A stretch of DNA of 64,000 bases from Cryptosporangium arvum DSM 44712. Lineage in GTDB: Bacteria; Actinomycetota; Actinomycetes; Mycobacteriales; Cryptosporangiaceae. Position numbers and translations under genes: made by a program. The stretch lies in NCBI RefSeq assembly GCF_000585375.1, contig NZ_KK073874.1:7475913-7539912 (forward strand). The letters are read 5' to 3'. Numbering within the stretch: position 1 is the first letter of the stretch; the number at the start of each line of letters is the position of its first letter. This document shows positions 2 to 30,460 of this stretch, piece by piece. Below the pieces are notes generated by a model. That model was not told where the DNA came from. It did not search any database and saw only the letters and a program-made list of their open reading frames with translations.

Positions 2-85
2 GTGGCGGTCGACGGATTGCCGCTCTCCTACTTCAGCGACGCGTCCCAGCCCCGCCCGCCCGGCTACGAGCAGCTCTCCCCCTCC
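2..85 (+). repeat. Papain-like copy 0 (only its C-terminal tail in window)
   Basis: The first residues, VDGLPLSYFSD followed by PPGY, match the closing segment of copies 4 and 5 (VDGLPLSHL, VDGLPLSPFS then PPGY). This shows that another papain-like domain lies just upstream of the window edge and that the listed GTG at base 2 is not the gene start. Confidence 0.75.
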
Positions 86-3000
86 CACTCCCGGCCGAGC
101 GCGCCCGTGGCCCCGGAGATCGGCTCGCCGCGCGAGGTCGCGGCGAACGGTCCGCTGGACCGGAGCATCCTCGGTCATCCGCTGGTGCGCGCCGATCCGT
201 CGCTGGAGCAGACGCTCCGGCGGGTCGTCGCGCGGCACCTCGACGCCGACCGCGCCGACGCGCAACCGCTCCGCGACCGGCTGACCGCGCAGAAGCGGCA
301 GCTCGACGGCTTGCGAGCGGGTCTTGCCGCCCTGGAAGCCGGCCGTTCCGACGACGAGGCCTCGTTCCGGTCCCAGCTCGACACCGCGCAAACCGCCCAC
401 ACCGACGCCGTCGCCGCGCTGGACCTCGCCACGCAGAACGTCGCGCGGTACCGCCGGGAATCGACGGAGCTGCGATCGGCGGCCGACCGGATGGCGCCCG
501 ACGAAGTGCGCCGGCGGGCCGCGGCGCTCGACGCGTCCCTCGCCGAGTGGGAGCTCGCCGAGCAGCGGTCCGCACAGGCCGTCGACACGGCCACCCGGAG
601 CCTGGACGACGCGCGCTCGGCCTTCCGGCGACACTTCCCCGGCGTCCTCGAGACCACCGAGGCCGTCGCCGCGACCACGGACGCGATCGACGCGACCCGC
701 CGGGCGCTGGCCGAACCCGCGCACCGACTCCTGACCGTGCTCGACCCGGAGACACTCCGCGCCGACCTCTCCGTGCTCACGGAACCGGCCGTCCGCGCCG
801 AGTTGGAGCTGATCTCCGATCGCTACTTCACCACGGCGGCGCAGGCGCACGACCGGCTGCGGGCTCTCGCCGCCGAACTCGCCGCCGACCGGGAGGAACT
901 GGCGGGCCGACGGCACGAACTGATGCAGCACGAGGCCGCGATCCGTTTCTGGACCGACGAGGTGCCCGACATCGAGGCCGCGTTGGACGAGGCGCGTGAG
1001 CGTCTCGGCGCGGCGAACACCGCGAAGGATCGGGCGGAGGCCGCGGCCGCCGGCGCGCGCGGCGACGCCCACCGGTTGCGTGAGAACGAGCAGCGCTACC
1101 GCCGGCTGGCTCGGTGGTCGCGGCTGGCCAGCGCGTGGATCGTCTCGAGGCTCACCTACCGGGCCCAGACGGCGGAGGCCGCGGCAGCCGACGCCGACCG
1201 CGCTGCCCACCGCCACGACCAGGGGGCCGCCGCGGCTCAGGAGGCGGTGGCCGCCGCCCGGAGGAGCCTCGACGAGCTCGTCGACCGGCTCACCGCGGCC
1301 GGTCTGTCGGTCGAGCACCACACCGAAGTCCAGCGCGACGTCCTCATCCGCATCAAGCAGCTCGAAGTCGTGATTCCGGCGGCGGAAGCGCGGATCGTCG
1401 CCCCGGAGTCCGACGATCGGCGCCACGGTCACTCGCCCGGCGCTCCGATGACCGTCGACGACATCGTCCTCGCCGACGGCGTCGACCCCGCTCTCCGGCA
1501 GCGCGCGTACGACACCTTGTACGGCCGGGCGGGGGTGGTTCCGCCGCGGTCGGACCAGCTGCTCCACCTCGGAGCCACGCTCGGCGAGCACGGTCGGCTG
1601 CCGGTGCACGCCCGGCCCCGCACGGCGACCGCCGCGCCGGGCCGCGCGCAGGTCGCGGACTGGTGGCAGTGGAACGGCGTCCACGCCGTCGCCGCCCGCA
1701 CGCCGGCCGAGGACGACACCGGCCGGGCCGCGGTGGAAGAGGCGACCGGAGGCCGGTTCCAGGAGCTCCTTCCGGACCGGGAGCACCCCGAGGATGCTCT
1801 GCGGGAGGCCGAGCGGCAGCTCCACGAGACGCTGCGCTCGGCGGGCGCCTCCGCCTACGTCTTCGTCCGCACTCGACCGGGCTCCGGCGACGAGCAGGCG
1901 TGGAGCGTGGTCGCCGCCGACGGGGGGATCTGGTACCGCGACCTGCGCAGCGGCGCCGAGACCGACGTCTTCCCGTTCGGACCCGACACCCGGTTCCTCG
2001 ATCTGCTGGTGACCCGCGGCGCCTCGCCTGTCGTCGTCGACGCGTTGCGCTTCGCCGACGACCGGAGCGCGTCGTCGCACTTCGACGGCCTCGTCCGGGA
2101 CCGGGAACAGCTGCGTATTCTGCTCGACCTGCTCGGCGACCAGCGCCGTGACCTCGAGTCGATGCGCCGGGACCTGTCGGCGATCACCACCGAGCTGACG
2201 ACGCGCGAAGCGTCGATGCCCGGCCTCCGCGAACGCCTGGACATCGCGGCCGAGCGCGTCGCCGTCGCCGCGAGGTCCATCGCCGGCCTGGAGCGTCGGA
2301 TCACCGAGATCACCGTCGCGGACGGGGACCCCGGCGAGCAGATCCGCGCCCTCCGCCGGACCCATCCGCTCGTCGACGCCGCGATGGACGCGGTGGCGGA
2401 GCTCGTCCGGGCCGGAGCGGACGTCGAGGAGCTCTCCGACCGGCAGGACCAGGTGCTGGCACGCGCCACGGCCACGAGCCGGGCGATCCGCGAGACCGAA
2501 CGCCGCCTCCTCACGCTCACCGCCCGCGCACCACGCACCGCGCCAGCCGGAACCGACGTTCCTTTACCGGCTGGAACCGACGTCCGGTCGTGGGCGGACA
2601 CCCCGGCCGCGCTGCTCCGGCAGCCCGGCGCGCTCACCCACCCGGCGGTCGTCGCCAGGCTCCACGAGGTCAGCGCCCGGTACTTCGCGGACGTGCGGGA
2701 CCAGCGCCCGCACCGCACCGTGCTCGACGAGCTCGCCGGCCGTGCGGCGGCACTCGCCACGCTCGGCCAGGATCTCCGGCAGCTCGAAGCGTCCACCGAC
2801 GAGGTCGACGTCCTCCGCGCCGCCGTCCGCGCCGCGGAGGTGGCGGTGCGGGCGGCACACGCCGAGTACCGGAGCGCGACGCGGATCGCGGAGCAGTTCC
2901 GCACCACCGCGGGAACGCTCACGCGGGAGGCGGCCGGGCTCCACGTCGCGAACCCGCCCGCTGCTCACGACCTGCGCACGCGGGCGGTCCGGCTCCGCGA

Positions 3001-6000
3001 CCTCGCCGAAGCCTGGGAGCGCAGCGTCACCGCCGACCGTGTCGTCGACCGGGCCGACGACGCCGTGGCCGCGGTCGGGGACCAGCCCGGGCCGCTCGCG
3101 GACCGGCTCCGCGTCCTCGTCGAGCGCGCGGACGCCGTGCGCGCCACGGCGACGGCGACCGGAGCGCTGCTCGGCCCGTCACCGACCGACGACGCCGAGG
3201 CCGTCAGCCGTGCGCTGCAGACCGTCCTCGCTACGGCCGAGACCGCGATGACCGCCGCGACCGGCCACCTGAACCAGTCGAGAAGTGCGGCCGCGCGGTT
3301 CCGGCTCGCCGACGACGCGACGACGGCGACGTCCGAGGAGCGGCTCCGGGCGGCGGTCGAGGCGTGGAACCGGATCAGTGAGGACGCCGCGGCCACCGTC
3401 GACCGCGCGGCCCGCCGTCTCGCCGAAGCCCGGGCGGCCGTCCGGGACCACCGGTCGCTGCCCACCGAGCCGGCGGACACCGGCGCGCGCGACGACGACC
3501 TCACCGCGTCGGAAACCGAGCCGGGCACGACCCGGTGGGACCTGGCCGGTCGGCCGTTGACCATCGACGACGTGCTCGCCGCGCCCACGGCCGACCTGGA
3601 CGCGGTCGCGCCGATCCTCGAGCATCTTCTCGGCCCGCAGGATCCGCGCTCCGGGCAGGAGATCGCGCCGCTGGCGCAGTACCTGCTGCTCGTCGGCACG
3701 GCGGCCGGGCCCGGCGGCACGATCCCGGTCCACGTGCTCTCGGCGCAGACCCTCGCCCTGATCAATCCCGATCTCGCTCTCGACCCGGCGCGTCGCGTCA
3801 ACTGCGTGGTCGCCCAGCTGGCGGCGTCGCTCACCTGGAGCGGCGTTCCGATGGTCGCCGGGCCATCGCTGCGCGTCGACACCGGAGACCCGGACGCGCG
3901 CCGCACGGTGGAGCGGATCACCGGCGCCCGGCTCCAGGAGCTCGTGCCGTTCGGCTCGCCGTCGGACGACGCACTGCGGGACGGCGAGCGACGCTTCACC
4001 GAGGCGCTGCGCTCGACCGGCCCCGGCGCCCAGGGGTTCCTCTACCCCGCATGGCGTGACGGCGGTGGACACGCCTGGAACGTGTTCAACGACGGCGGAC
4101 GCCTCGTCTACGTCGACGCGCAGACCGGGCAGCGGACCGAGACGTTCCCGTTCCGTGCCGCGCAGCTCGGCTTCCTGGACGGTTTTGTCCTCGACGCCGG
4201 CCGCGCTCCCGTGGGGATCGAGGAGGCGCCGCTGTCGTTCTTCGGCGACCGGCACCTGGCCGTACCCGACGCGTACCGCTCCGTCGTCGACGCCGCTCCG
4301 GCCGCGTCGACCCCGGTGCCCGGTTCCACCGTCGACGCGCGGGTGGGCTCCGGGCCCGCCGCACCGATCGACGTCGAAGCGCTGCTCGCCGACCCCCGCG
4401 CCGCACTGGACGATCCCGAGCTGCCCGAAGCCCTGCACCGGACCGCCGCCGCCCAACTCGCCGGGCTGCCGGTCGACGAACGGGTCGTCGGGGAGACCGC
4501 CGGGTATCTGCAGCGCCGGGTGCCGGTTCTGCTCACCGAACTCCAGAAGCAACGGCGGCTCGCGGACGAGGCCGCTGAGCGGGCCGCCCGTCGCGCCGAG
4601 CAGAAGCGCGAGCTGACGGCCCGGCTCAGCCCGGACCCGTTGGCCGACGACGACGTTCTCCAGCACACCATCGGCAGCGCGCAACGCGACGAAACCCGGG
4701 CGCGCCGGGAAGAGCGCACGGCCGGGGAGCGCGTCGCGGCACTGCGCACCGGGCTCCGCCTGCTGCTCACGGTGCCCGCCGATACGCCGTCGGCCGGCTC
4801 CGGATCGACGGATCCGCGAGCCGCGCTCGACCAGCTGCTCGACGCGTTCGCACGGTTCGACACCGAGTCGGGGGTCGCCCCGGGCCACCCCGCGGAGTTC
4901 ACGTCGGTGGCCGGAAGGATCTCCGAGCTCCGGCCGCTGCTGGAGGAGGCTCGCCGGACCCACGACGAGCAGACCGTCCGGATCGAGCAGCTGACCGCGG
5001 AGTACCGAACCGCACGCGACCAGGCGGCCGCGGCGCAGCAGACAGCGGAAGACTCCGGCCGGACGGCCGACGACTACGGCCGGTGGTCCCGGAAGGCTCA
5101 TTCGGCGGCACTGGGCACCGCGGAGCAGGCGAACAAGATCCGGCTGTTGAACCCGCTGCGAGCCCGCCAACTGGACCTCGAGACCGGTGAGTACAACTGG
5201 CTGGTCAGGTTGGACGAGCGGATCTGGGCTTTCTCCCGGGCGGACGAGCTCGAGGCCCGGGTCACCGCGGCCCAGGAGAGCCGGCGGGCCGAGCGGGCCG
5301 CGACCGAGCTGGCCGCGGTCGACGCGACGCTCCAGCAGCGTCGAGCCGACCTGACCGGGCACGGTCGGCGGTTGGCGACGGTGCTCGGCGCACTTCACCG
5401 GGCTCTCTCGCAGGACGGTCATCCGGCGATCGCCGAACTGGTCGGCGCAGCGCGGGCCGCACTCGACGAGATGGCGACCGCCCTGCTGTCCACGCCGGAC
5501 ACCTCCACCGCCGCTGAGTTCGACGGGATGCTGGCGGAGGCGCGGGCCCGGTCCGCCGCCTCCGCCGAGGCGCTCACGGCAACGGCCAGCGGTTTCGACC
5601 TCTCCCGCTGGCAGTCGAACCAGCGGGAGTGGATCCACCGGCGACGTGTGCAGGCGCGTCGTCACCGGCCGCTCGGAGCCGCTGATCCGAAGCCGTCGGA
5701 GACCGAGAGCGACGAGCGGGAACTCGACGAGATCACGGCGCTCGTCACCGGCCTGCGCAGCGAGACCCGACCACCGGCGCTCCCGGAGGCCGTCGCCGAG
5801 CCTCCGGCCACCGAGGTCGGCCCGGCCGACCTCCAGCGGTCGCTCGACGCCCTACGCGACGCCATGGCTCAGTTCGAGGCCCGACACGACGAGGTCGGTC
5901 TGGACAAGTTCGCCGCGTTGACGCCGGCGGTCGCGGCCCTCCGCTCCGCCGTGACGCCCGCGGCGGAGCGAACCGGCAACGAGCGAGTGGTCCAGCTCGT

Positions 6001-21000: not shown

Positions 21001-24000
21001 CGTCCTCAAGCCGGGAGCGAACGCCACCGACATCACCATGGCGGTGGCCACCGAGGTGACCCGATGGGTACGGGGCCAGGTCACTCCCCCGCGTCCCCGG
21101 AACAAGAACTACGACCGGCTGACCCTGCCCCTCGATCCGCGCGCCTGGCGCCCCCGCCACTACGCCGAGATCGCGACCCTCCGGGTGCTGCTGGCGAAGC
21201 TCGGGACCGCCCAGCAGCGGACGATCCGCAACGTCCCCCACGAGTCGGTCATCCGCTCTCAGATCCGGGAGGTGTCGCGCGCCCTCGAGCTCGACCGCGG
21301 TGTCGCCCGATCGACGTCCCGCCTGACCGTTCTCGTCGCGGAGGGGCAGCTCAGCCCGGAGCAGGCCCGGCTCATGCGCAAAGTCGACCGGCCCAGCTGG
21401 CGTCGGGTGGTCCTGCGTTGGGACGACAAACGAACCCAGCGGATGCTCGCGCGCGTCGGCAACTCCCTGGACCAGGTGAGCGACCTTCCCAGCGTCATCG
21501 AGGTCGTCTGGAAGCCGGCGCCGTGGGCCGCCGAGAACGACCTCACCGGGACCTACCTCGTCGCCCTCGAGAACGGCCGCACGATCGAGCTGGAGCTCAT
21601 CGGCGGTGCGCTCGTCGAAACCGAATCGACCGATCAACCCTCCGAGCCGACCGGCCGGCTGGCCACGATCGTCATCAACCAGCGTCGCCCGTCGAACATC
21701 CGCCCGGCCGAGTGGATGCGCTGGCTGCTGACGCCACCGGCCGAGCGCGGAGCCTCGCCGCTGCACACCAAGGCCGAGTGGGAACGCGAGACCGAGATCA
21801 GCGCCATCCGCCAGCTGGTGGCGCTGGCCGTCCTGCAGCCTCCCGCGGGCCGATCGGCAGCCGAGGCCGCGGCGGACCGCCCCACCGACCGCGTCCTGCA
21901 CCGAGGTGAGCCGAACCCCGATCCCGACGCGCTGACGCCGGAGGACGAGATCGAGCTCGGGGTGTTCAGCGCCCGGGTCCGGATGCTCGGTGCCGCCTGG
22001 ACCGAGGCCAGGCAATCGACGTGGAGAGCCGGTGTCACCCCGTTCATCGCCGGCCGGCGGGTCGCCAAGCTGAGCGCCCAGGTGCGGGCCGAGGCCCACC
22101 GCCTGGGTCTCGACCCGGGCGCACCCGGTGTCACCGGCCTTCGCGCCCAGCTCACCGAGGACGTCCGCAGGAAACTCGACCAACTCGACGGCGGGCGCGA
22201 AACCCGGGCCCCGCAGACCGTCACGTACCGCGCCGTGCGGACGCTGGACACCGTGGCCCGCCTCGGCGGGTTCCGGGTGGAGCGACCGGCGCCCGGCCTG
22301 TTCCGCCTCACCGATCCGGGAACCGGGGTCGTGAAGGAGTTCCGGCTCGGCTCCGGCGACCACGCGGGCTTCGGTACCGGAGTCGTCGACCTGGAAATGC
22401 CCGGCGACGGGTCCCTCATGCTGGCGTTCTCCCCGTGGCTCGACGACGCCCAGGTCGAGCAGGCCCTGGCCCGCCGGCTCGGCGAACTGATGGCCGACGA
22501 CCCGGACCGCGCACCGGACGCCGGCCGGACGCTCGAGGTCGCCATGCTGGTCGACCAGCTCCGGCGCACCGACCCGCCGGCCGGCGCGGAGGTCGTCCGG
22601 GACCGCCTGGACCGGGTGACCGGCTGGCTCGGACTGGATCGCGACGTGCCCGGCGTCGACGCTCACCGGGAGACGATGTTCCGACGGCATCCGGAGGTGC
22701 TCACCGAGTTGGCGGCCGCCGACGGTCTGGGCTCGTACCCGGCCGCGGACTTCGCCGCACTCGCCTCGGAACTGACGGTACTGGCTCCCGCGGCCGGGCT
22801 CGTCGTCGCCCGCGACCAGGGCGATCCGCGCCGGGTCGTGGTGCGGCTGCCCGGACGGGCCGACGTGCAGGCGACGCTGCTCCTCGTGGTCGATCAGGCC
22901 GGCCCCGGCCGGTTGGCCCGCGGCGATTTCGCGGCCGGGACGTTCCATCTCGACACCCGGGGTGAGGGCGTCGCCCGGCAGGCCGCCGTGGTCCGCGAGC
23001 TCGCCCGCATCGCCGCCGAGCTGGAAGGCAGCACCCCGGCCGACGCTCGACCGCGCCTCGTGCCGGGGCCGCTCGACGCCGACGTCCGGCCCGCGGACCT
23101 GACTCCGGACGACTGGGCCATCGCGGCCGAGGGCCGGTTCCTCGCCCGCGCATACCGGGCGAGCTCGAAGCGCGCCGATCGGGCCACCCGGCAGTTCATC
23201 CGCCGTCGTGTCGACGCGCTGGCTCAGGCCATCGGCGCGCTACCGGACGAGCCGGGAGGCCGGCACCGCATCGCGGCGCTTCCGGCCGAGTTCGGGACGC
23301 TGCTGGCGAATCTCCAGTACGGCGAGACCACCGACGAACGGGCCCTGGTCGCCGAGACCGCGCTCACCGGGCTGGCCGAGCGGCTGGGTGTCACGGTCAG
23401 CCGGGTCAGCCGCGGCCCGCAGGAAGTCGGCCGCGGCGCCGAGGAGCCCGCACCGCGCTACCTCCTCACGATGCCGGACGGTTCGACGATCCGGCTGCGC
23501 ATCTTCGTCGACTCGCTCGGCAAGGGTGTCGTGGCCAAGTCGACGCGAGCGGAGGACACCGGGACGGAGACGGTGTGGACGCTGGACGTCTCCGAGAAGC
23601 ACTCGGCCGCGGAAATCGACGCGGCGGCCACCCGGGCGCTCGCCGACGTGCTCCGCACCCAGATCACCACCGCCGGATCCGACGTGCCCAGCTTCCACCT
23701 GGGAACCCCGGATGCGGACGCCCAGAAGCTGGCTCGCGTCCGAAGCGGCGGACGGCCGCAGGCCGGGTTGCTCGCCGCGCTCGAAGAACTACGCGTCCTG
23801 GATCGGATCGCGTACCCGTCGGCCGGCGCCGCGGACGACGGACGGACCACTCGTTCCCAGCGACGCGCTCGGCGGGCCGCCCAGGATCTGCTCGTCCGGA
23901 TCGGTATCGCCGTCGGGGCCGACGATCCGCACGGGCTGCGCGGCCGGATACCCGTCGGCTATCACGAACTCGTCGCACGCCACGACGGCAGTCAGGCCGC

Positions 24001-27000
24001 GGCCGACCCGGGAGCGGCGCTGGCCGCCGCCCGACGCGCCGTCGAAGACGCCGCGCGCTTCCGCACCCACGACTACGACGCCGGAACCAAGGTGACGCCG
24101 GGCGCGGGCAACGACGTCCTGACCGTCCGCTTCGAGACGGGCCAGGAGATCAAGCTGCAGGTCGTCACCGCTCCTCCGCCCGGGGTGGACGCGCTGCGCC
24201 CCGGGGAAGCGGCGATCGCGTTCGATCTCCCGGACGGCCCCGGACAGCCGGCCGTCCGGGGCCTGCTGGTGTCGCCGACCGCGCCGCCCGACGCCGTCGC
24301 GATGGAGGCGGCCGTGCAGGCCGCGGATCTTCTGCACACGATCGATCCGCCCGTCGATCCACCGCATGCCGACCCGTCGACGGTCGCGCGGTTGCGGGTC
24401 CTGCTCGAACGGCAGAGTCATCTGCGTGCCCGGGCCCGGCACCGAGCGACTCCGGACGCGGCCTCGGGCGCGCCGAGGCGGCCGGTGCTGCGTCCGCAGA
24501 GCGGTCGTCAGGACGAGTCCCGGCTGCGTTTGCTCCTGGCCCGGGAGGGCTACCTCGCCGACCATCCCGCGGTGACCGCCAATCGTGCCGGGCTTCCCGC
24601 GACGCTGCGCGAGGAGCTGGCGGCCCGCGACGGAGCCGCGAGGACGGCGAGCGACCGGCGGGTCCGTGGCACCGTGTCGTCCGGGCTGCGCCGCCTCGCC
24701 ACGGTGACCGGGGCGCATCGGATCACCGTCGACGACGCGGCGACCGGGCGGCAGCGCGTCACGGTGGTGATCAACGCGGACGACGGGCCCGATGAGCACA
24801 TCACGTTCGACGTCGCCGCCGCGCCCCTCGACTCCGGAGTGAGCAGCCGCCCGGACCCGAACGACGGGAACGTCCTGCTGTTGTCGGACACCGCGGCGCC
24901 TAACCGTCTGCGCGCCGCGCTGGCGCGGGAGGTGGCACGCCGGATCGTCGAAGCGTCCTCCCTGACCCCTGGCGTCCCGGCCGCCGGGGCGACCCCCGTG
25001 CTCTGGGAGCCCGGCGCGGACGGGGACCCGGTCATCACGCCCGAGGGGCACGGCGAGATCGCCTACCTGCACACGGTCGCGCTCTCCGCGGGTATGCGCA
25101 GCGCGGAGTTCGAGGAGACACTGGCCCGGCTGGGCCTGCACCCGACGCAGCCCGATGCGGTCGATCGCGCACGCGCTCTCGACTCCGGGTTGGTGAAGAA
25201 GGCCCGGCGAGGCATCGCGAAGCTGGACGACCCGTGGTCGCGCTCGCGGCGCAACGAGGACGAACTCGGGACACCGCCCGCGGTTCCGGCCGTGGGCTGG
25301 TACGTCCTGAAGGCCGCGCTCGGCTCCGCGGGCGTCGGGCTGGCCGGGAGCAGCCTCGCGACGCTCGCCAGTGGCCGTCCGATGGTGGCGGCCCTTACCG
25401 GAACGCTCACCGTCGTGACGTCGCTCGGCGGTGGGTGGGGGGAATGGCGGTTGATCCGCAGCACCCAGCGGAACGCGGAGATCAAGGCGATCGCCGGGCG
25501 GAAGAAGGCGGCGACGGAGTCCCGCGCGCGGCTCCGGAGCTATCAGGGGCTGCTCGACGACCTCAACGACCGGCTCGGGCCACTGAGTACGGTGAGCGTG
25601 CCGGCGGCACCCCGGCCCGGGGAGGTCTACGGGAACCGCCTCCTGGATCCCAACGCGGTACCGCTTCCGCCGCGCCCGGCGCAGAGCGCCCTGTTGACGG
25701 CTCGGCTGCTGCTGCGCAAGTTCGCCGTCACACCGCTGGTCTCCGCGGGTATCGGCACCTGGTTGATCGTGGAGGCCGGCGTCGCGCTGTCGCCCTGGGT
25801 CATCAGTGCCGGAGTCGTCGCGGGCGTCGGCACCGCGGTGGGCGACTGGCTGCGCCGGCGCAAGGAGGAAGAGGAGGCGAACCGCGACGCCGACCGGCAA
25901 CGCGACCGGGATTACGAGCACAGCCGCCACGTCGTGGCCGAGGAGCAGCGCGTCCTCGACGAGTTGCAGTTCAAGGCCGCACTCCTTCTCGAGGAGCGGG
26001 CGCGGCTCGCTCGACAGGCCGGGGTCCCGGACTCCGACCCACCGCCGAGCCGGCTGCCGGTGGTCGGCGCGACACCGGCGCCGGAGGGGGGCCGGGTGTC
26101 CTGGTCCTGGAAGCGGGAGATGCCCGGATTCATCCCGCACCTGATCAAGTCCGCATCGACCGTCGGGCTCGGCGCCGGGGCCGCTGCCGTCGGAACCGTG
26201 CTGGCCGGTAAGTACTTCAACATTCCGATCTCGTGGGACGTCGTCGAGGTCGGCCTGTACGGCGGCGCCGCGGGCACGCTCGTCGGCGGTTCCTCCGAGT
26301 CGCGCATGATGTACCACGCGGACCAGCGCAAAGCTCGCAAGGAGCGGGACCAGGCGAACCTCAACCTCCGGGTCAAGGTCAAGCGCCTGGAACAGATCGA
26401 GGCGATCGTCACCGATCTCCGGCACGCCCAGTGGCTGGGGAAGCAGATCGGCGAAGGCTGGCAGGAGCCGCTGTTCGACCGGGAGATGCTGCCCCGCATC
26501 GAGCCGAGCCCGGTTCCCCCCAAGGACGTCCCCGTGCTGACGTTCAAGCAGTTCGTCAATCGGGAGTATTTCGAAGCCTACGGATGGCCGGGGTACGTCT
26601 ACCTCGGGGCGAGCATGGTCATCGGCGCGGCGAGCAAACTCTTCCTGCCGTCGCTCTACACCGCGAACGCGGCGACGACGGCACCCGGCACCGCGGCACC
26701 CGGCACCGCGGCACCCGGGACGGCGACGGGCGCCCAAGCAGCGAGCCAAGGCGCTCTGATGCAGCAGGGCCTCGCCGGCCAATCGGCCCGCGGTGCCGTC
26801 ACCGCGATCACGGGCAGCTGGAGCGATCGTTATGCCGACACCCACGCCGACTACCGCGCCGCCGCACGCAAAGCCCCCTACGAGAGGCGGGAAGCCGAGG
26901 TCGACGCGGCGATCGTCGCGGCCGAGCGCAACATCGCCGCCACGCTCCTGGACCTGGATCTGGAGCAGGAGGCGTTGGAGCGGGTGATGTCACGACGGCG

Positions 27001-27061
27001 GCCGGGCGGCAACGGCCCGAACCCGCTCGCCGGTCCCACGGCCAACCCCGACCAGCCCTGA
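2..27061 (+). CDS. Giant multi-domain protein with an array of papain-fold (glutamine-deamidase-like) domains and C-terminal membrane segments; 5' end outside window
   Basis: The frame is open from the left edge to the TGA at 27059-27061, 9,019 codons here, and begins inside a repeat, so the true start lies upstream. Residue numbers count from base 2. Order: tail of a papain-like copy (1-28); helical spacers alternating with seven papain-like copies (about 480-5320); helical and strand-rich modules (about 5500-8400) with a Pro-Gly linker (about 5810-5870); hydrophobic hairpins (about 8430-8890); a polar tail. Intact copies carry (R)xNC, then GxHAW-like and DxQxG-like motifs, the Cys/His/Asp triad expected of the Tox-PL / papain-fold toxin family. 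That family deamidates glutamine or cleaves peptides in polymorphic toxin systems. Whether this protein is secreted, surface-bound or an internal scaffold cannot be seen without its N-terminus. The long ORFs on the other strand here are GC-skew shadows. Function of the whole is unknown. Confidence 0.9.
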   Translation: MAVDGLPLSYFSDASQPRPPGYEQLSPSHSRPSAPVAPEIGSPREVAANGPLDRSILGHPLVRADPSLEQTLRRVVARHLDADRADAQPLRDRLTAQKRQLDGLRAGLAALEAGRSDDEASFRSQLDTAQTAHTDAVAALDLATQNVARYRRESTELRSAADRMAPDEVRRRAAALDASLAEWELAEQRSAQAVDTATRSLDDARSAFRRHFPGVLETTEAVAATTDAIDATRRALAEPAHRLLTVLDPETLRADLSVLTEPAVRAELELISDRYFTTAAQAHDRLRALAAELAADREELAGRRHELMQHEAAIRFWTDEVPDIEAALDEARERLGAANTAKDRAEAAAAGARGDAHRLRENEQRYRRLARWSRLASAWIVSRLTYRAQTAEAAAADADRAAHRHDQGAAAAQEAVAAARRSLDELVDRLTAAGLSVEHHTEVQRDVLIRIKQLEVVIPAAEARIVAPESDDRRHGHSPGAPMTVDDIVLADGVDPALRQRAYDTLYGRAGVVPPRSDQLLHLGATLGEHGRLPVHARPRTATAAPGRAQVADWWQWNGVHAVAARTPAEDDTGRAAVEEATGGRFQELLPDREHPEDALREAERQLHETLRSAGASAYVFVRTRPGSGDEQAWSVVAADGGIWYRDLRSGAETDVFPFGPDTRFLDLLVTRGASPVVVDALRFADDRSASSHFDGLVRDREQLRILLDLLGDQRRDLESMRRDLSAITTELTTREASMPGLRERLDIAAERVAVAARSIAGLERRITEITVADGDPGEQIRALRRTHPLVDAAMDAVAELVRAGADVEELSDRQDQVLARATATSRAIRETERRLLTLTARAPRTAPAGTDVPLPAGTDVRSWADTPAALLRQPGALTHPAVVARLHEVSARYFADVRDQRPHRTVLDELAGRAAALATLGQDLRQLEASTDEVDVLRAAVRAAEVAVRAAHAEYRSATRIAEQFRTTAGTLTREAAGLHVANPPAAHDLRTRAVRLRDLAEAWERSVTADRVVDRADDAVAAVGDQPGPLADRLRVLVERADAVRATATATGALLGPSPTDDAEAVSRALQTVLATAETAMTAATGHLNQSRSAAARFRLADDATTATSEERLRAAVEAWNRISEDAAATVDRAARRLAEARAAVRDHRSLPTEPADTGARDDDLTASETEPGTTRWDLAGRPLTIDDVLAAPTADLDAVAPILEHLLGPQDPRSGQEIAPLAQYLLLVGTAAGPGGTIPVHVLSAQTLALINPDLALDPARRVNCVVAQLAASLTWSGVPMVAGPSLRVDTGDPDARRTVERITGARLQELVPFGSPSDDALRDGERRFTEALRSTGPGAQGFLYPAWRDGGGHAWNVFNDGGRLVYVDAQTGQRTETFPFRAAQLGFLDGFVLDAGRAPVGIEEAPLSFFGDRHLAVPDAYRSVVDAAPAASTPVPGSTVDARVGSGPAAPIDVEALLADPRAALDDPELPEALHRTAAAQLAGLPVDERVVGETAGYLQRRVPVLLTELQKQRRLADEAAERAARRAEQKRELTARLSPDPLADDDVLQHTIGSAQRDETRARREERTAGERVAALRTGLRLLLTVPADTPSAGSGSTDPRAALDQLLDAFARFDTESGVAPGHPAEFTSVAGRISELRPLLEEARRTHDEQTVRIEQLTAEYRTARDQAAAAQQTAEDSGRTADDYGRWSRKAHSAALGTAEQANKIRLLNPLRARQLDLETGEYNWLVRLDERIWAFSRADELEARVTAAQESRRAERAATELAAVDATLQQRRADLTGHGRRLATVLGALHRALSQDGHPAIAELVGAARAALDEMATALLSTPDTSTAAEFDGMLAEARARSAASAEALTATASGFDLSRWQSNQREWIHRRRVQARRHRPLGAADPKPSETESDERELDEITALVTGLRSETRPPALPEAVAEPPATEVGPADLQRSLDALRDAMAQFEARHDEVGLDKFAALTPAVAALRSAVTPAAERTGNERVVQLVALAEDYRTALDRAQQARRTADERHREISDEHNPWIAHLTDAAAGRQARVDDGSVKGLEARRLRSEARVLQRLVDRAETERSQVMEDARSAGNTATAEAGTAADAAAVLIARLTPDVLEIIGNQAARPATPRDLPTLLAGLDAATNDPAITDPEVRELLRDIRSTQDRLTVLDSRPADVEPEHRRDAEDARRHLAALIAGLDQRVQPPARPAEDPAEGLPELDRLQREPTAALADATFLAAVHDAARRSLPDAESRGSRLRQLFDAAEGLDRQIDAAQRPMSEVPVVRDRAEQVVAMAGEAARATAAASETAAAVERLDDTITELRSAVEPGRTPPREKIIELRGQLLRARQAATEAAEIRDRAVREWTDAREQHDRYLRTAEESATAAVDDARQRLDRLVREVFPDYVGPASSTEHAATEPAAPDEPEPRPHEDLRREAEQVAAEISRLDALARLSAREAMEAAATAGELQATIAEAESRGEENEGAVRALGRATRRQAEQQKRESAARAGIGELQPRLDRLRRLMFPGSAAVAPLGDVPGAGPDAAWLRDPDVVTALITAAERHFDELRTGHEGLSSVVDVVELLRQLLAALRDELRPLHAALRRSDVTLATESTAVATAVAETERALRTASETADQLGEAVADRDATSDLMRALRHRATTQYEAAVAANYDPTLLDTAYRLNAAALERHLGERTTIDDHSSELRAVLAGSLASVTAGSAAVRALLTARTTHDELSGRVRATANAIAAIEATLNRVGRLVGRSALADTTREDTLPPAARDGQPLGRAAAERTPAERRELADDPTVAQALESARTSYLNQRLVVSRAAEYMRGHMVALVDELRALDADADRAAEELARVEELVAEYRGAHPSPSRPAWDALIATIARAEAAHDRIRQERELVEDELSMFGEALSPSAHAHPDLRTVPVNWSELHGGAAAPAWMHLGLELALADEDGTIPARPAIDERWLSWIDAVARPFDLTRQLDDGARARWAAVRTLSGDPQVAAGTALALDRTTLRLRPLGDSRAADEIRTGGRYQELVAFQHHGSAGSPETEQALRNAEQRVAEALLAAGDGAFALIDAVGRDRTGTAAWAAVNEGGRIRYLNAKEVGSGNPWLTDDFPFDADRTLFLDLLVVGPDGEPVPVDGAPLSAFSDRTHPLPDPYVAATAAAPPASRPPDSLAQLDPSRLLADPVGALADPALIAVLSEALGRIYPDERDADRALRALLDEAGAIRAESSTTASSHVVTDAERRLIDLTAQHADAATMVTDAAGAIARLEEAPRGAGHESRLDVLRAVESQRVGARDLLARQLADARSALETVRGLARDVATGRLEALRHELARLTDTIEAGAGRPDATGADHRRPAAPVDVELLRTDPWAALNDQAFSTQLFDHARRFLIARFDEDEELTRWLGRARTDLEQITRLEESAAEAEDQAATIRRDAESEVASAARRKDDAEQRRADLDRGRKRWQRLPGYRRRRAAAAARDVEAAAAALDQKVARQLDEEQHAQDVRHGAVEQRAEIARLRAGVDQLVRALSPGTHDDPDLADAPTNWLRINAPAHGDDPLARPATEFPMDFADVPAPGAAERPRPSTLATNHRMPTLGEQLRLLVALVAAGKHPPDLGRWVSLGNSAGPVDPGRRDNCMAASRTFTSIWSGVYEVAPATHVSATLHGSDLDVGSPGEARSVNEQYYGGRYQEVVPFQPSEADVRDGLQRVTDTLLRSGDRANAKLVVLWPDGGTHAFDAVNQNGRVYWVDLQIGTFTTDFPYPVDQVSYLDMLLLDPESRPAAVDGLPLSHLTTRSLPVPEAYADAAALEPSAPPPGDEVPTLVRGESSGDNGLSVLRDRRLSPQDRLALVTDALLADPRFEADVRRSVDGYYARLAAANLVVRDHLKAMSSLSDRIDRLDIGVQDALTAIDYGVRRIARLNTQQQEALDRAAAAREAARFRREQARALAATSRDLRAAADDLSAQATDTWQPGRAHRLAARSRRYADEAAAYANRSAELRFAALRSEHIALVHGERAGRIVTAADDVRAGQQDDATRAEEQRARAEELRQDLDRLERVMLPQSFRDDDLADIRADPNRTDWGRMNLPGLDEPLWHPVDHGRTALTEAIPATLVEEIALRVELFRATGEQAPVNPPVLEGNWVFLGNGHGYVDSGRRENCVYTVLSFWNTLRGRPEVAPRLMREGFTEFDFDAPIQPYADPTVQDLESRFGGRLQEVVPFLDDVDPGTPEAEAALDTAVARITAALRAAGENSIAFLNHAYRDSSLAHAWVAVHQDGKILFVDTQSGVVSEKLPFRAAIGFLEMLVLDAGDRPYPVDGLPLSPFSIGDPPPGYALATATAGPPSAVPDRMRSGLQLRAGDPPGVPDTAEATKAEVRAYFANSERLTRLRDVLAGLRAVRAHSAYLETKADSGALDENRRAYRRIALAAGLDPDTPVDVNSDVGRLMRPEDPAARVSRAPGAPDREPVEATRGEYYRPPLRVHQWAVEEVVPNEGGEFERHFSLVDHPDVVPRINPGHQVDATFRANCADAVMAFIDTWVYGRPRVAAPLARDVYSDDTGHYDLDEIRARESRRVQDWLGSRFQTVVAREPGNPAASARGLQSVADAVRRGGPGTAAVVTLDWNAGSHLVSVVNDHGTVRWIDPQIGAVDTEPMYRPDQVAGLSMILIAPDGTAVDVPGLPFAENLPQLTGAPATGGAEPPGGAESTDPPQAAADLLDTLSDPAALREFVVANRRYYAQRARLRLSDWDYYSFAARVQPEIERLSTALATAPTGDEGSRDAALDRATDAAQDTAVAAHGAATADARARRLRSEASDRAATTGERPGDRAEAYRAAGEARRADDLAQVTDVAAARALSGLEPAIRAAADAAVDAAAGSDRPVEAPAAIRARIDQLVASLEFVRRSLFPETEAVRLPVRPDTGPAWRTDPEAVRQREAEAVAYYQAADRIERLHDVFREAHDLKRRWVNAERRLARLTAERQPLADPAGADPATVADPGLEAARAGADQARRAYENATEPHVDALREAYSALFPVAAPPTDLSAADLLDRIDRDADFGELVGPEDRFAQYLRTPSTGDRVPAGLLSLFGPHSYRPPLRQQDQAIKEALRTPDGGYRRHRPVADDGSPDFVDWVPLLNPAWRHDPYSRLNCADAVRKFFDVWDGREPSVAAPSSRSTIVTRSEAESTQAYGRTWQNVDEAWLGRPTQPVVTVPGGTEADQHRAAIDAGVRTIVDAVDAEGPGASAYIALSWTEGGAGHVWAVVNQGGSVKWVDPQTGRVGDGPFNRSLSLSGLWVILRDANGVAKPVPGLPDPGTDPAAPSRAEARGGPTGGATGGGTGGAVPVDRIRELHRATTARNPRTRERAVRQLDELLGTENLVAPRVDPVTGAPVGGSPGFADRVAQLPADVRTIVENRPHDRAAQREAALGARARAVREAALDQARTGRDAATLERERAQLTAARHRLDARLAALAAGQPDPGPATSSPLALAQRARQVAESFSGPGTPFTDVRVDPAGTVRLTGDDGEFRLRIETGSATEPVRITVLPDGPTRPVDAATVTDDVQRALRDAVSGRASANVLAGGAADGPIDPDAFTSRDHQRLAAIGQTLDRLDQAANRPAEAGRLRARARAQIAAAGLAPALDESPPRPGADLDPDAAGWPRRRAAIDPGLADRIAALDPQPNVGLAAQTQRLAVVGDVGRRQQRSAAARAEEYLRELRDGVAQERAAVRQREQSLAAVLGAGSTPTITPPTLRPASPGATAPAATPTTGPAAPSTTVPPLRPAAPAATATPGSSATPGVPAAPGGPGGSGGPSSPGGPNSPGGPVSPGGPVSPGGPPPGGPPPGGSVPPGGPPPGGPPPGGNPNSASHPDGPLFGTDPSDNLRNAAWIAEIAGVAGITPAGRPGAFFVTTNNGRQLPLVLSEADDLAPGTVRAAWVRRADPAQPPILGIARPVRGRRVEVQIEVAAQIAAYVAVATGTAGPTNLLGSGPPDVQLRADNAAPRFSAADHQALARVRGTARAVDEVHPLRRGPARERFRQTLVDAALLPLDPATGALDHTAPRLAAAVRAGLLDPAHLDAVATEAGTPRTPVTRRVEDAVARAVTTFGGTAQARGGALVDLVPPGFAGLTAQVVVGDAGDPPATVTFGAGTVRVTVAADADPTAAAIDAATQIARTIGSTLVTTSTSLGRRPATRTPVFGNHPLPADVDRSDFRIGDYTARARLTELIETARSGHRAQRREALAELTRTAGRLGLRLGAPDAARRRALLSRGAASAAAPGSLAPASTPDSGGTDVAAALAELIDGRLPRPDPDAVLRSLLAGAERATGELRGLADALGVRSTRIDRSEPDILLVTPHGGAPERVRLVFAAVPSGAVAVVDTPSGAVVLDHRAAPTDAAIGLAGAVAELRAIRAGVAVGPPVLRTGVEAARITEDDLVVADHRSRAELGLAQAQRTVRGRSVPATEALHALARETGVLAGDVRPPARSAAEITAERAERDQIARRRSVLDAATERALAVVGGAEPPNLTRARRQIEDVTRRHAIAGGAAQPVRLGVGEVSLRAGSGVSTLTIRVGDRVPGDPRNAPARIRPATATSGPLVTVFADADPLALDRAIARATAVELARLSGLPTDITVDDVAAAAELVELGRQASDPGLGPLRRRAAARASTRLRTESRLDPDRPGGERHYARLRAAGLIPDADHQRLDTLLDQEVVRLRQETRERMVQAATDAGATGVERIGHGAARVTLPGGDQVTIEVAIDRDPAEVRVPERDVLTVTRSRPPIYVGETEAHTLALAAEVARHLAERRGLPEDTVVLRPGAQSEPVRPEDYGARDVIAVARLRRLLTDTPGIARPLVEELGLGHDTIGAAERRASLPADVRRLLETHDGRLGTHETVTTGLLAAEAALLFANPTIKIPDAPDEAAKYEAATIQVERLADRPNVLRVMIPDVPRPGGRTESVVAEVAVYRDPSDTADLAVFPPDARTRAPDEPQNFTVVLKPGANATDITMAVATEVTRWVRGQVTPPRPRNKNYDRLTLPLDPRAWRPRHYAEIATLRVLLAKLGTAQQRTIRNVPHESVIRSQIREVSRALELDRGVARSTSRLTVLVAEGQLSPEQARLMRKVDRPSWRRVVLRWDDKRTQRMLARVGNSLDQVSDLPSVIEVVWKPAPWAAENDLTGTYLVALENGRTIELELIGGALVETESTDQPSEPTGRLATIVINQRRPSNIRPAEWMRWLLTPPAERGASPLHTKAEWERETEISAIRQLVALAVLQPPAGRSAAEAAADRPTDRVLHRGEPNPDPDALTPEDEIELGVFSARVRMLGAAWTEARQSTWRAGVTPFIAGRRVAKLSAQVRAEAHRLGLDPGAPGVTGLRAQLTEDVRRKLDQLDGGRETRAPQTVTYRAVRTLDTVARLGGFRVERPAPGLFRLTDPGTGVVKEFRLGSGDHAGFGTGVVDLEMPGDGSLMLAFSPWLDDAQVEQALARRLGELMADDPDRAPDAGRTLEVAMLVDQLRRTDPPAGAEVVRDRLDRVTGWLGLDRDVPGVDAHRETMFRRHPEVLTELAAADGLGSYPAADFAALASELTVLAPAAGLVVARDQGDPRRVVVRLPGRADVQATLLLVVDQAGPGRLARGDFAAGTFHLDTRGEGVARQAAVVRELARIAAELEGSTPADARPRLVPGPLDADVRPADLTPDDWAIAAEGRFLARAYRASSKRADRATRQFIRRRVDALAQAIGALPDEPGGRHRIAALPAEFGTLLANLQYGETTDERALVAETALTGLAERLGVTVSRVSRGPQEVGRGAEEPAPRYLLTMPDGSTIRLRIFVDSLGKGVVAKSTRAEDTGTETVWTLDVSEKHSAAEIDAAATRALADVLRTQITTAGSDVPSFHLGTPDADAQKLARVRSGGRPQAGLLAALEELRVLDRIAYPSAGAADDGRTTRSQRRARRAAQDLLVRIGIAVGADDPHGLRGRIPVGYHELVARHDGSQAAADPGAALAAARRAVEDAARFRTHDYDAGTKVTPGAGNDVLTVRFETGQEIKLQVVTAPPPGVDALRPGEAAIAFDLPDGPGQPAVRGLLVSPTAPPDAVAMEAAVQAADLLHTIDPPVDPPHADPSTVARLRVLLERQSHLRARARHRATPDAASGAPRRPVLRPQSGRQDESRLRLLLAREGYLADHPAVTANRAGLPATLREELAARDGAARTASDRRVRGTVSSGLRRLATVTGAHRITVDDAATGRQRVTVVINADDGPDEHITFDVAAAPLDSGVSSRPDPNDGNVLLLSDTAAPNRLRAALAREVARRIVEASSLTPGVPAAGATPVLWEPGADGDPVITPEGHGEIAYLHTVALSAGMRSAEFEETLARLGLHPTQPDAVDRARALDSGLVKKARRGIAKLDDPWSRSRRNEDELGTPPAVPAVGWYVLKAALGSAGVGLAGSSLATLASGRPMVAALTGTLTVVTSLGGGWGEWRLIRSTQRNAEIKAIAGRKKAATESRARLRSYQGLLDDLNDRLGPLSTVSVPAAPRPGEVYGNRLLDPNAVPLPPRPAQSALLTARLLLRKFAVTPLVSAGIGTWLIVEAGVALSPWVISAGVVAGVGTAVGDWLRRRKEEEEANRDADRQRDRDYEHSRHVVAEEQRVLDELQFKAALLLEERARLARQAGVPDSDPPPSRLPVVGATPAPEGGRVSWSWKREMPGFIPHLIKSASTVGLGAGAAAVGTVLAGKYFNIPISWDVVEVGLYGGAAGTLVGGSSESRMMYHADQRKARKERDQANLNLRVKVKRLEQIEAIVTDLRHAQWLGKQIGEGWQEPLFDREMLPRIEPSPVPPKDVPVLTFKQFVNREYFEAYGWPGYVYLGASMVIGAASKLFLPSLYTANAATTAPGTAAPGTAAPGTATGAQAASQGALMQQGLAGQSARGAVTAITGSWSDRYADTHADYRAAARKAPYERREAEVDAAIVAAERNIAATLLDLDLEQEALERVMSRRRPGGNGPNPLAGPTANPDQP
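1447..2075 (+). repeat. Papain-like copy 1, catalytically degenerate
   Basis: The copy starts with TVDDIVLADG, paralleling TIDDVLAAP of copy 2. It keeps the central GGRFQELLP motif and the closing FPFG...RFLDLLV segment. The Asn-Cys nucleophile motif is absent: the aligned stretch reads DWWQWNGVHAV. The catalytic His is Gln632 (QAWSVV), while Asp647 is kept (WYRDLRSG). It is therefore a fold-retaining, probably inactive copy. Confidence 0.7.
3554..4285 (+). repeat. Papain-like copy 2, intact triad
   Basis: The motif DPARRVNC gives Cys1268. GGHAWNVFN gives His1357 and VYVDAQTG gives Asp1372. GARLQELVPF lies between. Spacing and order match papain-fold toxin domains of the glutamine-deamidase type, so this copy could be active. 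Confidence 0.75.
4286..8758 (+). other. Longest helical spacer of the giant protein
   Basis: About 1,490 residues rich in Ala, Arg, Glu, Asp and Leu, with heptad-like Leu/Ala spacing and almost no Cys, His clusters or long hydrophobic runs, so probably coiled coil or helical bundle. It consists of several diverged units that open with an L...RYF-like or similar helix and close with short L-F/S-P motifs (for example REVFPDY, RLMFPG, ALSPS). Similar units separate the other papain copies (about 86-1446, 2076-3553, 9500-10640, 11440-12235, 14090-15295). No enzymatic motif was seen. Confidence 0.6.
8759..9500 (+). repeat. Papain-like copy 3, catalytically degenerate
   Basis: It keeps GGRYQELVAF, the VNEGGRIRYL strand pair, DDFPF and the VDGAPLSAFSD tail. 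No Asn-Cys motif is present in the first third, the His position is Ala3093 (TAAWAAVN), and the Asp motif is replaced by LNAKEVGSG. All three catalytic positions appear lost. Confidence 0.7.
10640..11440 (+). repeat. Papain-like copy 4, intact triad
   Basis: DPGRRDNC gives Cys3648, GTHAFDAVN gives His3745 and YWVDLQIG gives Asp3760. GGRYQEVVPF and the VDGLPLSHL tail are present. The linker before it (LSPG...DPDLADAP) resembles those before copies 3 and 5. Confidence 0.75.
12235..13050 (+). repeat. Papain-like copy 5, intact triad
   Basis: DSGRRENC gives Cys4170, LAHAWVAVH gives His4278 and LFVDTQSG gives Asp4293. GGRLQEVVPF and VDGLPLSPFS complete the repeat. Confidence 0.75.
13450..14090 (+). 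repeat. Papain-like copy 6, intact triad, second subtype
   Basis: It opens with YYRPPLRVHQWAVEE, shared with copy 7 but not with copies 1-5. FRANCADAV gives Cys4537, GSHLVSVVN gives His4637 and RWIDPQIG gives Asp4652. The central motif is SRFQTVVA. Confidence 0.75.
15295..15960 (+). repeat. Papain-like copy 7, intact triad, second subtype
   Basis: It opens with SYRPPLRQQDQAIKE as in copy 6. SRLNCADAV gives Cys5157, AGHVWAVVN gives His5264 and KWVDPQTG gives Asp5279. It is the last papain-like copy; a Gly/Thr-rich linker follows at about 15990-16040. Confidence 0.75.
16500..25190 (+). repeat. Array of about 13 degenerate strand-plus-helix modules in the giant protein
   Basis: Units recur about every 600-700 bases. 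Each has a short helix, two or three beta strands with a turn (for example RVTLPGGDQVTIEVAI, LTMPDGSTIRLRIF, VALENGRTIELELI), then a stretch like ADADPTAAAIDAATQIA and a charged helical segment. Approximate strand-core positions are 16540, 17730, 18400, 19080, 19690, 20250, 20880, 21570, 22320, 22840, 23460, 24120 and 24760. The repeats are visible in protein only, so they are old. I do not recognise the family. Confidence 0.55.
17440..17610 (+). repeat. Pro-Gly-Ser minisatellite linker
   Basis: Tandem 15-18 base units encode repeats of SPGGP, PPGGP and VPPGG (residues about 5810-5870). A Pro/Ala/Thr-rich stretch precedes it from about 17255. This is a low-complexity extended linker between the first and second strand modules; DNA-level similarity of the units indicates recent expansion. 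Confidence 0.85.
25290..26680 (+). other. Hydrophobic hairpin region at the C-terminus of the giant protein
   Basis: Hydrophobic, Gly/Ala-rich stretches lie at residues about 8432-8480, 8569-8617, 8714-8763 and 8868-8890. The first three are long enough for two membrane passes each. Highly charged helical segments (for example RRRKEEEEANRDADRQRD) separate them. This suggests membrane insertion or pore-type hairpins near the C-terminus. Confidence 0.55.
26680..26730 (+). repeat. Short tandem repeat encoding TAAPG
   Basis: Three near-identical 15-base units (gcacccggcaccgcg type) encode APGTA repeats just after the last hydrophobic segment. Low complexity. Confidence 0.75.
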
Positions 27062-27069
27062 CCCCTCGC

Positions 27070-29042: not shown

Positions 29043-29050
29043 CGGCCTCG

Positions 29051-29056
29051 ATCGTA
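29051..29056 (-). promoter_or_regulatory. -10 hexamer TACGAT, near-leaderless start
   Basis: On the minus strand TACGAT lies 8 bases before the ATG of the gene ending at 28425. No good ribosome binding site lies between, consistent with a leaderless or nearly leaderless transcript. Confidence 0.4.
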
Positions 29057-29076
29057 GGGCGGGTGGCCACTCTGGC

Positions 29077-29082
29077 TACAGT
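29077..29082 (+). promoter_or_regulatory. -10 hexamer TACAGT, leaderless start
   Basis: TACAGT lies exactly 7 bases before the ATG at 29090 with no Shine-Dalgarno sequence, the usual layout of leaderless actinobacterial genes. Confidence 0.45.
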
Positions 29083-29089
29083 GGGCACC

Positions 29090-30351: not shown

Positions 30352-30358
30352 GTGAGGC

Positions 30359-30364
30359 ACGATA
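30359..30364 (-). promoter_or_regulatory. -10 hexamer TATCGT, leaderless start
   Basis: Minus-strand TATCGT lies 7 bases before the GTG at 30351. It decides between two in-frame starts. Confidence 0.45.
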
Positions 30365-30460
30365 GCCCAACGCCCCACGCGCCCCTGACCGCCGTCGGAA
30401 GCAGCGCAAGGTACCGTGAGGCCGGTCGAGTCCCACCCCGGCGAGAGGGTTTCCGGCCCG

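What the first reader, a model, noticed from the sequence alone, without database searches (positions are those of the whole stretch)
2..27061. A single giant protein carrying at least eight papain-fold deamidase-like domains
Polymorphic toxins normally carry one C-terminal toxin domain. Here the domain recurs eight times along one chain of more than 9,000 residues, separated by long helical spacers, and is followed by other modules rather than being terminal. This looks more like a multi-warhead or multi-site scaffold than a classical toxin. Triad motifs are seen directly; the Tox-PL / papain-fold toxin assignment is from family knowledge.
Basis: partly seen in the sequence, partly recalled or inferred. 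Interest (0 to 1): 0.85.

Follow-up and report, generated by a model that had tools for sequence, protein, structure and literature searches.

The report
Giant protein with repeated enzyme heads
A bacterium, probably an actinobacterium, has beside a type VII secretion gene cluster one gene for a protein of about 10,900 residues bearing eight copies of a papain-like enzyme domain, six with an intact active-site motif; similar giants occur in some relatives, so this looks like a real but little-studied class of many-headed protein.

Summary
The frame is real and longer than the finding says: 10,929 aa, starting at an ATG 5.7 kb before the window, in a one-contig 9.2 Mb genome. [quoted passage not shown] Seven lie in the window: five with Cys-His-Asp motifs intact, two degenerate. 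The eighth, intact, lies just upstream. The whole chain has only seven cysteines; six are the active-site ones. The gene ends an ESX/type VII locus with EccC, EccD, EccB and WXG100. Its N-terminus is WXG100-like by homology with other giants, not by its own Pfam match. Giants with 1-4 copies sit beside ESX genes in other genomes. Best reading: a type VII substrate with several enzyme heads on a long chain, probably an effector against other cells; auto-processing is the main rival. No activity, export or fold was shown. Giant multi-toxin actinobacterial proteins, type VII-linked Tox-PL1 and a Salinispora protein with Tox-PL domains are in print: a new variant of a known kind.

The parts
2..27061 (+). 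Window part (residues 1911-10929) of a 10,929-aa gene whose ATG lies at window -5728 (genome 7470184)
1616..2026 (+). Tox-PL1 copy 2 (residues 2449-2585), degenerate: no active-site Cys or His
   Evidence: own profile E 9.7e-16; Pfam 25.9 bits
3713..4207 (+). Tox-PL1 copy 3 (residues 3148-3312), intact: Cys3178, His3267, Asp3282
8885..9427 (+). Tox-PL1 copy 4 (residues 4872-5052), degenerate: no Cys, no His, DxQ replaced
   Evidence: own profile E 8.4e-25; Pfam 26.4 bits
10856..11371 (+). Tox-PL1 copy 5 (residues 5529-5700), intact: Cys5558, His5655, Asp5670
12419..12967 (+). Tox-PL1 copy 6 (residues 6050-6232), intact: Cys6080, His6188, Asp6203
13523..14047 (+). Tox-PL1 copy 7 (residues 6418-6592), intact: Cys6447, His6547, Asp6562
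15383..15928 (+). Tox-PL1 copy 8 (residues 7038-7219), intact: Cys7067, His7174, Asp7189
4208..8884 (+). Longest spacer between copies (1,559 aa), Ala/Arg/Leu/Glu/Asp-rich; parts of spacers resemble each other
   Evidence: composition; self-comparison; no Pfam match above cut-off at E <= 10
15929..27058 (+). C-terminal third (residues 7220-10929), cysteine-free, no Pfam match above cut-off; its last 519 aa match the giant frames of G001 and G002 and two frames on another contig of G003
25736..25837 (+). Hydrophobic segments near the C-terminus (residues 10489-10522), membrane-helix-like by hydropathy only

Best explanation
The gene encodes a large substrate of the ESX (type VII) secretion system beside which it lies. 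Shown or well supported: an N-terminal WXG100-like module (by homology), a Ser/Thr/Pro/Gly-rich stretch, then eight Tox-PL1 domains separated by long charged Ala/Arg-rich spacers, then a 3,700-aa tail of unknown nature. Six domains keep the full NC-H-DxQ set and two do not. Inferred: the WXG100-like end is recognised by EccC/EccD/EccB with the help of neighbouring small proteins. The chain is released or stays at the cell surface, where the six heads act as cysteine enzymes (glutamine deamidation or peptide-bond cleavage) on proteins of competing or predatory cells; the two degenerate copies serve as spacers or binding modules. Copy number changes by duplication inside the gene. The neighbouring 192-aa zinc-ribbon protein may be a protective or chaperone partner.
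For: Locus: EccC (TIGR03924 926 bits, TIGR03925 888 bits), EccB (306 bits) and EccD (200 bits), all over their cut-offs; WXG100 gene PF06013 34.7 bits; subtilase and AAA genes. Synteny: of 15 stretches examined, chosen for PF15644 frames and not for ESX, 12 hold relatives of EccB, EccC, EccD and MycP, and 11 hold a YbaB-like gene, directly or one small gene before the giant. Signal: 12 of 14 frames share the N-terminal module by an iterated profile; PF25547 WXG100_2 reaches its cut-off in 6 of 7 other giant frames tested; the PDB list of the N-terminal profile includes EsxA at E 0.0044. Active sites: six of eight copies keep NC, H and DxQ, the Asp always 15 positions after the His. Cysteine rationing: 7 Cys in 10,929 aa against 73 expected at the rate of 56 neighbouring predicted genes; six of the seven are active-site Cys. 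In G002 4 of 6 and in G003 4 of 5 Cys are active-site ones. Fold: PF15644; a wider profile finds PfhB2 6u8t at E 0.0014, aligned over a His...Asp part. Expansion: the 16 copies from G000, G002 and G003 form one clade, several with their nearest relatives in the same gene.
Against: No secretion, activity or target was shown. The window protein's own N-terminus gets no Pfam match at E <= 0.1; its WXG100-like nature rests on homologues, and the nearest (G002) only just passes (27.2 bits against 27). The top PDB match of the N-terminal profile is not a WXG protein (7y9n, E 0.00071). The mycosin and EccA relatives score below their NCBIfam cut-offs. G059 and G024 have no ESX gene in the stretch fetched. 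The cysteine pattern is not general: in G001 1 of 5 Cys, and in f15 giants 3-4 of 13-16, are NC active-site ones. In f15 the heads are not clearly better conserved than the spacers (71-98% against 81-94% identity, G196 versus G247). The window copies alone give no significant PDB match (6u8t at 0.28). No gene of a known immunity family was found among the neighbours scanned.
Confidence: 0.5

Rival explanations
1. The internal Tox-PL1 copies are auto-processing peptidases that cut the giant chain into pieces after export, so the spacers or the C-terminal tail are the business end.
For: Zhang et al. 2012 propose this for internal Tox-PL1 copies (PMC3482391 section 12); [quoted passage not shown] All eight copies here are internal, with 3,710 aa after the last.
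Against: No recognisable passenger: no Pfam match above cut-off in the C-terminal third or the longest spacer. Six intact copies seem more than release would need. No repeated cleavage-site motif was sought systematically.
Confidence: 0.25
2. A non-toxic surface or envelope scaffold: an extracellular fibre anchored at the cell, whose papain-like heads modify or cross-link the cell's own envelope or ESX proteins (transglutaminase-like chemistry).
For: Recurrent place beside ESX core genes. In four f15 genomes the copies are orthologous by position rather than swapped. Hydrophobic stretches near both ends. No known immunity family among the neighbours scanned.
Against: Copy number differs between close relatives: 8 here, 4 in G002, odd for a housekeeping scaffold. 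The family is known from toxin systems. The family is patchy: PF15644 in 139 of 397 genomes of the order.
Confidence: 0.2
3. Degenerating repeat array with no present function in most copies.
For: Two of eight copies have lost the active site; only 7 of 22 copies in the three G024 frames keep NC.
Against: The six intact copies are diverged (29-42% identical to copy 5; copies 1 and 3 are 49% identical; not every pair was computed) yet all keep NC, H, DxQ and the +15 spacing. The frame stays open over 10,929 codons with coding bias in 42 of 42 windows.
Confidence: 0.05

Closest known systems
Tox-PL1 / Pfam PF15644 Gln_amidase (Zhang et al. 2012, PMC3482391; section 12 read, other passages seen)
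   Same: Same domain family and NC-H-DxQ signature; reported there in type VII (WXG) proteins of actinobacteria and in internal positions
   Different: Eight copies in one chain, six intact and two degenerate, with almost no other cysteines, at the end of an ESX locus
Giant actinobacterial multi-toxin proteins, e.g. SACTE_5178, 13,652 aa (PMC3482391, passages)
   Same: Size class, actinobacterial, several enzymatic domains in one chain
   Different: That one combines different toxins (metallopeptidase, caspase, ART, MCF1-SHE); here one family is repeated and no other Pfam domain reaches its cut-off
Salinispora tropica calpain homologue with Tox-PL and YwqJ-deaminase domains (Rawlings 2015, PMC4631099, passages)
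   Same: Tox-PL domains (the paper's plural) in one actinobacterial protein; the f15 giant G196 here also carries a calpain domain
   Different: No calpain domain found in the window giant, which has eight copies; the Salinispora protein itself was not fetched
PF25547 WXG100_2 N-terminal domains
   Same: Giant frames in a congener, in other genomes and in the own second locus start with it
   Different: The window's own copy is diverged and not recognised by Pfam alone

Membership tests
Tox-PL1 / PF15644 | Profile match over the curated cut-off | tested here: met
   8 of 8 copies over 24.1 bits, the weakest 25.9 and 26.4
Tox-PL1 / PF15644 | NC-H-DxQ signature | tested here: met
   6 of 8 copies; copies 2 and 4 fail
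Tox-PL1 / PF15644 | Papain-like fold | tested here: inconclusive
   Structure prediction switched off. PDB profile: PfhB2 6u8t at E 0.0014 with the wider alignment, 0.28 with window copies alone; that 6u8t is papain-like is recalled. No profile match to the calpain domain of f15 giants
Tox-PL1 / PF15644 | Glutamine deamidase or peptidase activity | not testable with these tools
   Needs an assay
Type VII (ESX) substrate | N-terminal WXG100-like module | tested here: inconclusive
   No Pfam match for the own N-terminus at E <= 0.1. Shared module in 12 of 14 frames by iterated profile; PF25547 at or over cut-off in 6 of 7 other giant frames
Type VII (ESX) substrate | Encoded with ESX core genes | tested here: met
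   EccC, EccD, EccB, WXG100 upstream
Type VII (ESX) substrate | ESX-dependent export | not testable with these tools
   Needs a secretome of wild type and eccC deletion
Classical polymorphic toxin | Single variable toxin domain at the extreme C-terminus | tested here: not met
   All eight copies internal; 3,710 aa follow the last
Classical polymorphic toxin | Adjacent immunity gene of a known family | tested here: not met
   No immunity-family match among the neighbouring proteins scanned with Pfam; a zinc-ribbon protein of unknown role is linked

The most novel reading that the evidence does not exclude
A class of polycatalytic type VII substrates spread over several families of the order: one chain of about a megadalton carries several separately evolving papain-like heads, in the window's gene rationed to one cysteine per active head. 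Head number is set by duplication inside the gene, and dead heads are kept as binding or decoy modules, so one exported molecule attacks or modifies many protein sites at once rather than delivering one toxin.
Probability: 0.3. Interest if true: 0.72.

Novelty: new variant of a known kind. Interest (0 to 1): 0.52.

Why it matters
If the heads are active and exported, this is one chain with six active sites, and a test of how an ESX system handles a protein of more than 10,000 residues. The pattern of one cysteine per intact head gives a direct prediction: each head should be inactivated by a single Cys change. The zinc-ribbon partner and the YbaB-like gene near the giant are cheap handles for finding an immunity or chaperone protein of this little-studied class.

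Tried and rejected
Chimera or frame artefact: rejected. Eight copies inside the window: rejected, seven. Further hidden copies: three extra stretches scored below zero bits. Repeat units in the C-terminal third: unresolved. Iterated profiles of three pieces found only themselves (a fourth key string was not found). Of nine pieces, one (u6) matched three other places in the giant at E <= 0.0025 (best 1e-31, next 4.2e-10) and, besides its counterpart, four places in the G002 frame at E <= 2e-10, so a short repeated element in the tail is likely; five other pieces gave only themselves and weak matches, one only itself, and two (u2, u9) returned no rows at all, not even themselves, so that test was not clean. 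A first self-comparison gave no rows and was redone in windows. Heads more conserved than spacers: not supported; gaps are almost all in the spacers. Named relatives: both genome-contig scans found nothing, so organisms are unnamed here. Papain fold by comparison with the calpain domain: no match. Cysteine loss as a general rule for exported actinobacterial proteins: not supported by PMC9974433 (passages), which says roughly 60% of them have even numbers of Cys. Literature: searches in the held library showed me no paper on multi-copy PF15644 giants in ESX loci beyond the three cited; of 46, 72 and 78 I saw 20 of 22, 10 of 17 and 8 of 164 listings, by title and abstract start; most subscription papers are not held.

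Full report
What is there. The window is G000:C1:7475913-7539912 of a one-contig genome of 9,195,993 bases, at 63-78% G+C in 2-kb steps. No tool named the organism. The frame 2..27061 (+) continues upstream to an ATG at window -5728 with GGGGAGGAA just before it; the full protein has 10,929 residues. The frame looks coding throughout by codon-position G+C, 42 of 42 windows of 1.5 kb, and a frame this long is not expected by chance.

The repeated domain. Pfam reports PF15644 (Gln_amidase, papain fold toxin 1) and no other family above its cut-off in the giant. A search of the own genome lists 11 matches: 8 in this gene and 3 in two frames of a second locus at 0.30-0.31 Mb. A profile from the five named copies finds the same eight in the giant, with E between 9.7e-16 and 3.6e-79. 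Aligned, copies 1, 3, 5, 6, 7 and 8 have NC, then H, then DxQ, with the Asp exactly 15 positions after the His in all six (in copy 5 the pattern search also listed a second, unaligned His); copies 2 and 4 have lost Cys and His. Copy 1 lies just outside the window (-535..-2). So the window has seven copies, five intact, and the whole gene eight, six intact.

Cysteine rationing. The 10,929 residues contain seven cysteines: one at residue 15 and the six active-site ones. At the pooled rate of 56 neighbouring predicted genes (0.67%), 73 would be expected (binomial P about 3e-23). The neighbour set was picked by codon-position bias, so the figure is a guide. Two congeners follow: the G002 frame has 6 Cys, 4 of them active-site ones and 2 among its first 39 codons; the G003 frame (cut at its 5' end by the contig) has 5, 4 of them active-site ones. 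Others do not: G001 has 5 Cys for one copy, and the f15 giants 13-16 Cys for 3-4 copies. It is not a general rule for exported actinobacterial proteins, roughly 60% of which have even numbers of Cys (PMC9974433, passages). I take it as strong evidence that the six heads are kept as cysteine enzymes.

The locus. Going upstream from the giant: a 122-aa protein, a YbaB-like protein, a 192-aa zinc-ribbon protein and an SseB-like protein on the same strand; on the other strand an AAA protein with a beta-helix part and a subtilase; then on the giant's strand a 107-aa protein, WXG100, EccB and EccD, and EccC on the other strand. NCBIfam confirms EccB, EccD, EccCa and EccCb over their cut-offs; mycosin (216 against 278.75 bits) and EccA (246.6 against 466.65) are below theirs. 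Downstream in the window, after three short frames without Pfam matches, come a SpoIIE/histidine-kinase protein, an STAS protein, an amidase and metabolic genes, so the giant appears to be the last gene of the cluster.

Relatives. PF15644 occurs in 139 of 397 genomes of the order (137 over the cut-off) and in 0 of 14 control genomes. Among the rows that call listed (the list was cut), 11 genomes besides the window's have one frame with three or more matches; one search adds G024, G036 and G059. The longest frame with matches has 20,955 codons (G059, three Pfam matches, two by my own profile). I fetched 14 further stretches, from 13 other genomes and the own second locus, chosen for large PF15644 frames; with the own locus that makes 15. 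Other listed frames (for example in G211, G314, G274, G337) were not fetched. Relatives of EccB, EccC, EccD and MycP are all present in 12 of 15, and a YbaB-like gene in 11 of 15. The misses for ESX are G003, whose stretch begins inside the gene, and G059 and G024.

The N-terminus. The own N-terminal 404 aa matched in 8 of 200 genomes, 11 rows, 8 of them in frames of 1,820-10,954 codons. An iterated profile links 12 of 14 frames, the two short one-copy frames being the misses. PF25547 (WXG100_2) reaches its cut-off in 6 of 7 other giant frames, one of these being the own second locus; G059 is below it. The own copy has no Pfam match at E <= 0.1. A PDB profile search lists EsxA at E 0.0044, behind a non-WXG chain at 0.00071. 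I conclude: WXG100-like by homology, not by direct profile.

Evolution. In a tree of 68 copies, the 16 from G000, G002 and G003 group together (support 99/87), several with nearest relatives in the same gene (G002 1861 with 2326, G003 1594 with 2180, copies 5 with 6, and copies 1-4 of the window gene). The single copy of the G001 giant instead groups with the own second locus, as its N-terminus does by eye, so G002 (4 copies) and G003 (at least 4, cut) are the fair comparisons for the window gene's 8. In four f15 genomes (G196, G204, G215, G247) the copies group by position. So copies multiplied inside the window's genus and stayed put in f15. The degenerate copy 2 has the longest end branch (1.62). 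In f15, identity of heads (0.71-0.98) and spacers (0.81-0.94) between G196 and G247 overlaps, but gaps are almost all in the spacers.

The C-terminal end. The last 519 aa match the giant frames of G002 and G001 and, in G003, two frames (380 and 2,499 codons) on another contig than its multi-copy frame; one further genome, G054, is at E 9.9e-4.

A linked small protein. The 192-aa zinc-ribbon protein has no known family (best weak match in one of six members, E 0.0018). It matched 31 of 394 genomes. By my comparison of the two lists, 26 of these 31 also have PF15644, against 139 of 397 overall (Fisher P 8e-9; three of the 397 were not in the 394, and related genomes are not independent). It lies within about 3 kb of the giant or a one-copy frame in 9 of the 15 stretches, and about 12 and 16 kb away in G346 and G385. 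An immunity or chaperone role is a guess.

How it most likely works. Type VII export of a chain with six enzyme heads is the reading that uses most of the anatomy. The main rival is Zhang et al.'s proposal that internal Tox-PL1 copies are releasing peptidases (PMC3482391 section 12 read). No passenger domain is recognisable here, which weighs against it, but the C-terminal 3,710 residues are uncharacterised. The chemistry (deamidation, proteolysis or transamidation) is open. The family name says glutamine deamidase by annotation only.

Novelty. Type VII-linked Tox-PL1, internal copies, and actinobacterial giants above 10,000 aa with several toxin domains are all in PMC3482391 (section 12 and passages). 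A Salinispora protein with Tox-PL domains and a calpain is in PMC4631099 (passages), and the f15 giant G196 also has a calpain domain. What I did not find in the held library is a description of many-copy PF15644 giants as a regular part of ESX loci, of the mixture of intact and degenerate heads, or of the cysteine pattern.

Noticed in passing
G000:C1:285000-324999 (L018, L019): A second ESX-like locus in the same genome, with a 2,806-codon frame (two PF15644 copies) and a 1,222-codon frame ending just after a single copy.
   Followed up: partly
L004:12625-13200 (+), window about -7288..-6710: A 192-aa zinc-ribbon protein of no known family, linked with PF15644 giants across the order; candidate immunity or chaperone.
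   Followed up: partly
L046-L047 (G024:C112:217210-241382): Three consecutive overlapping frames with 5, 9 and 8 PF15644-like copies; NC-bearing and other types are mixed and fall into four groups in the tree.
   Followed up: no
L044, L045, L066, L068 (G059:C82:16939-79803): A single open frame of 20,955 codons with PF15644 copies and a WXG100_2-like start below cut-off; no relative of the own ESX proteins in the 100 kb read.
   Followed up: no
L058:6224-6946 (-): The giant of G196 also carries a calpain-family domain (PF00648, 59.9 bits) in its C-terminal part; counterparts aligned from three more f15 giants are 87-95% identical.
   Followed up: no
giant, residues 541-10400 (in the window 2-25471): Lysine is rare: 55 found against about 185 expected at the neighbour rate, while the first 540 residues have 7.8% lysine. 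Some neighbouring genes have none, so the meaning is unclear.
   Followed up: partly
G001, G000b and f15 giants, about 97-168 residues before the first active-site Cys: Three extra cysteines at similar spacing (C ... CxxC), perhaps another small domain; absent from the window giant.
   Followed up: no
L004:9974-11698 (-): The EccA-like AAA protein carries a right-handed beta-helix region before its ATPase part.
   Followed up: no
window 27062-30388: About 3.3 kb after the giant with only short frames without Pfam matches (185, 216 and 302 codons); coding status unclear.
   Followed up: no
window 20477-24673 and the G002 giant: An iterated profile of residues 9010-9320 matched three other places in the C-terminal tail and several in the G002 frame, suggesting a short repeated element there.
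   Followed up: no
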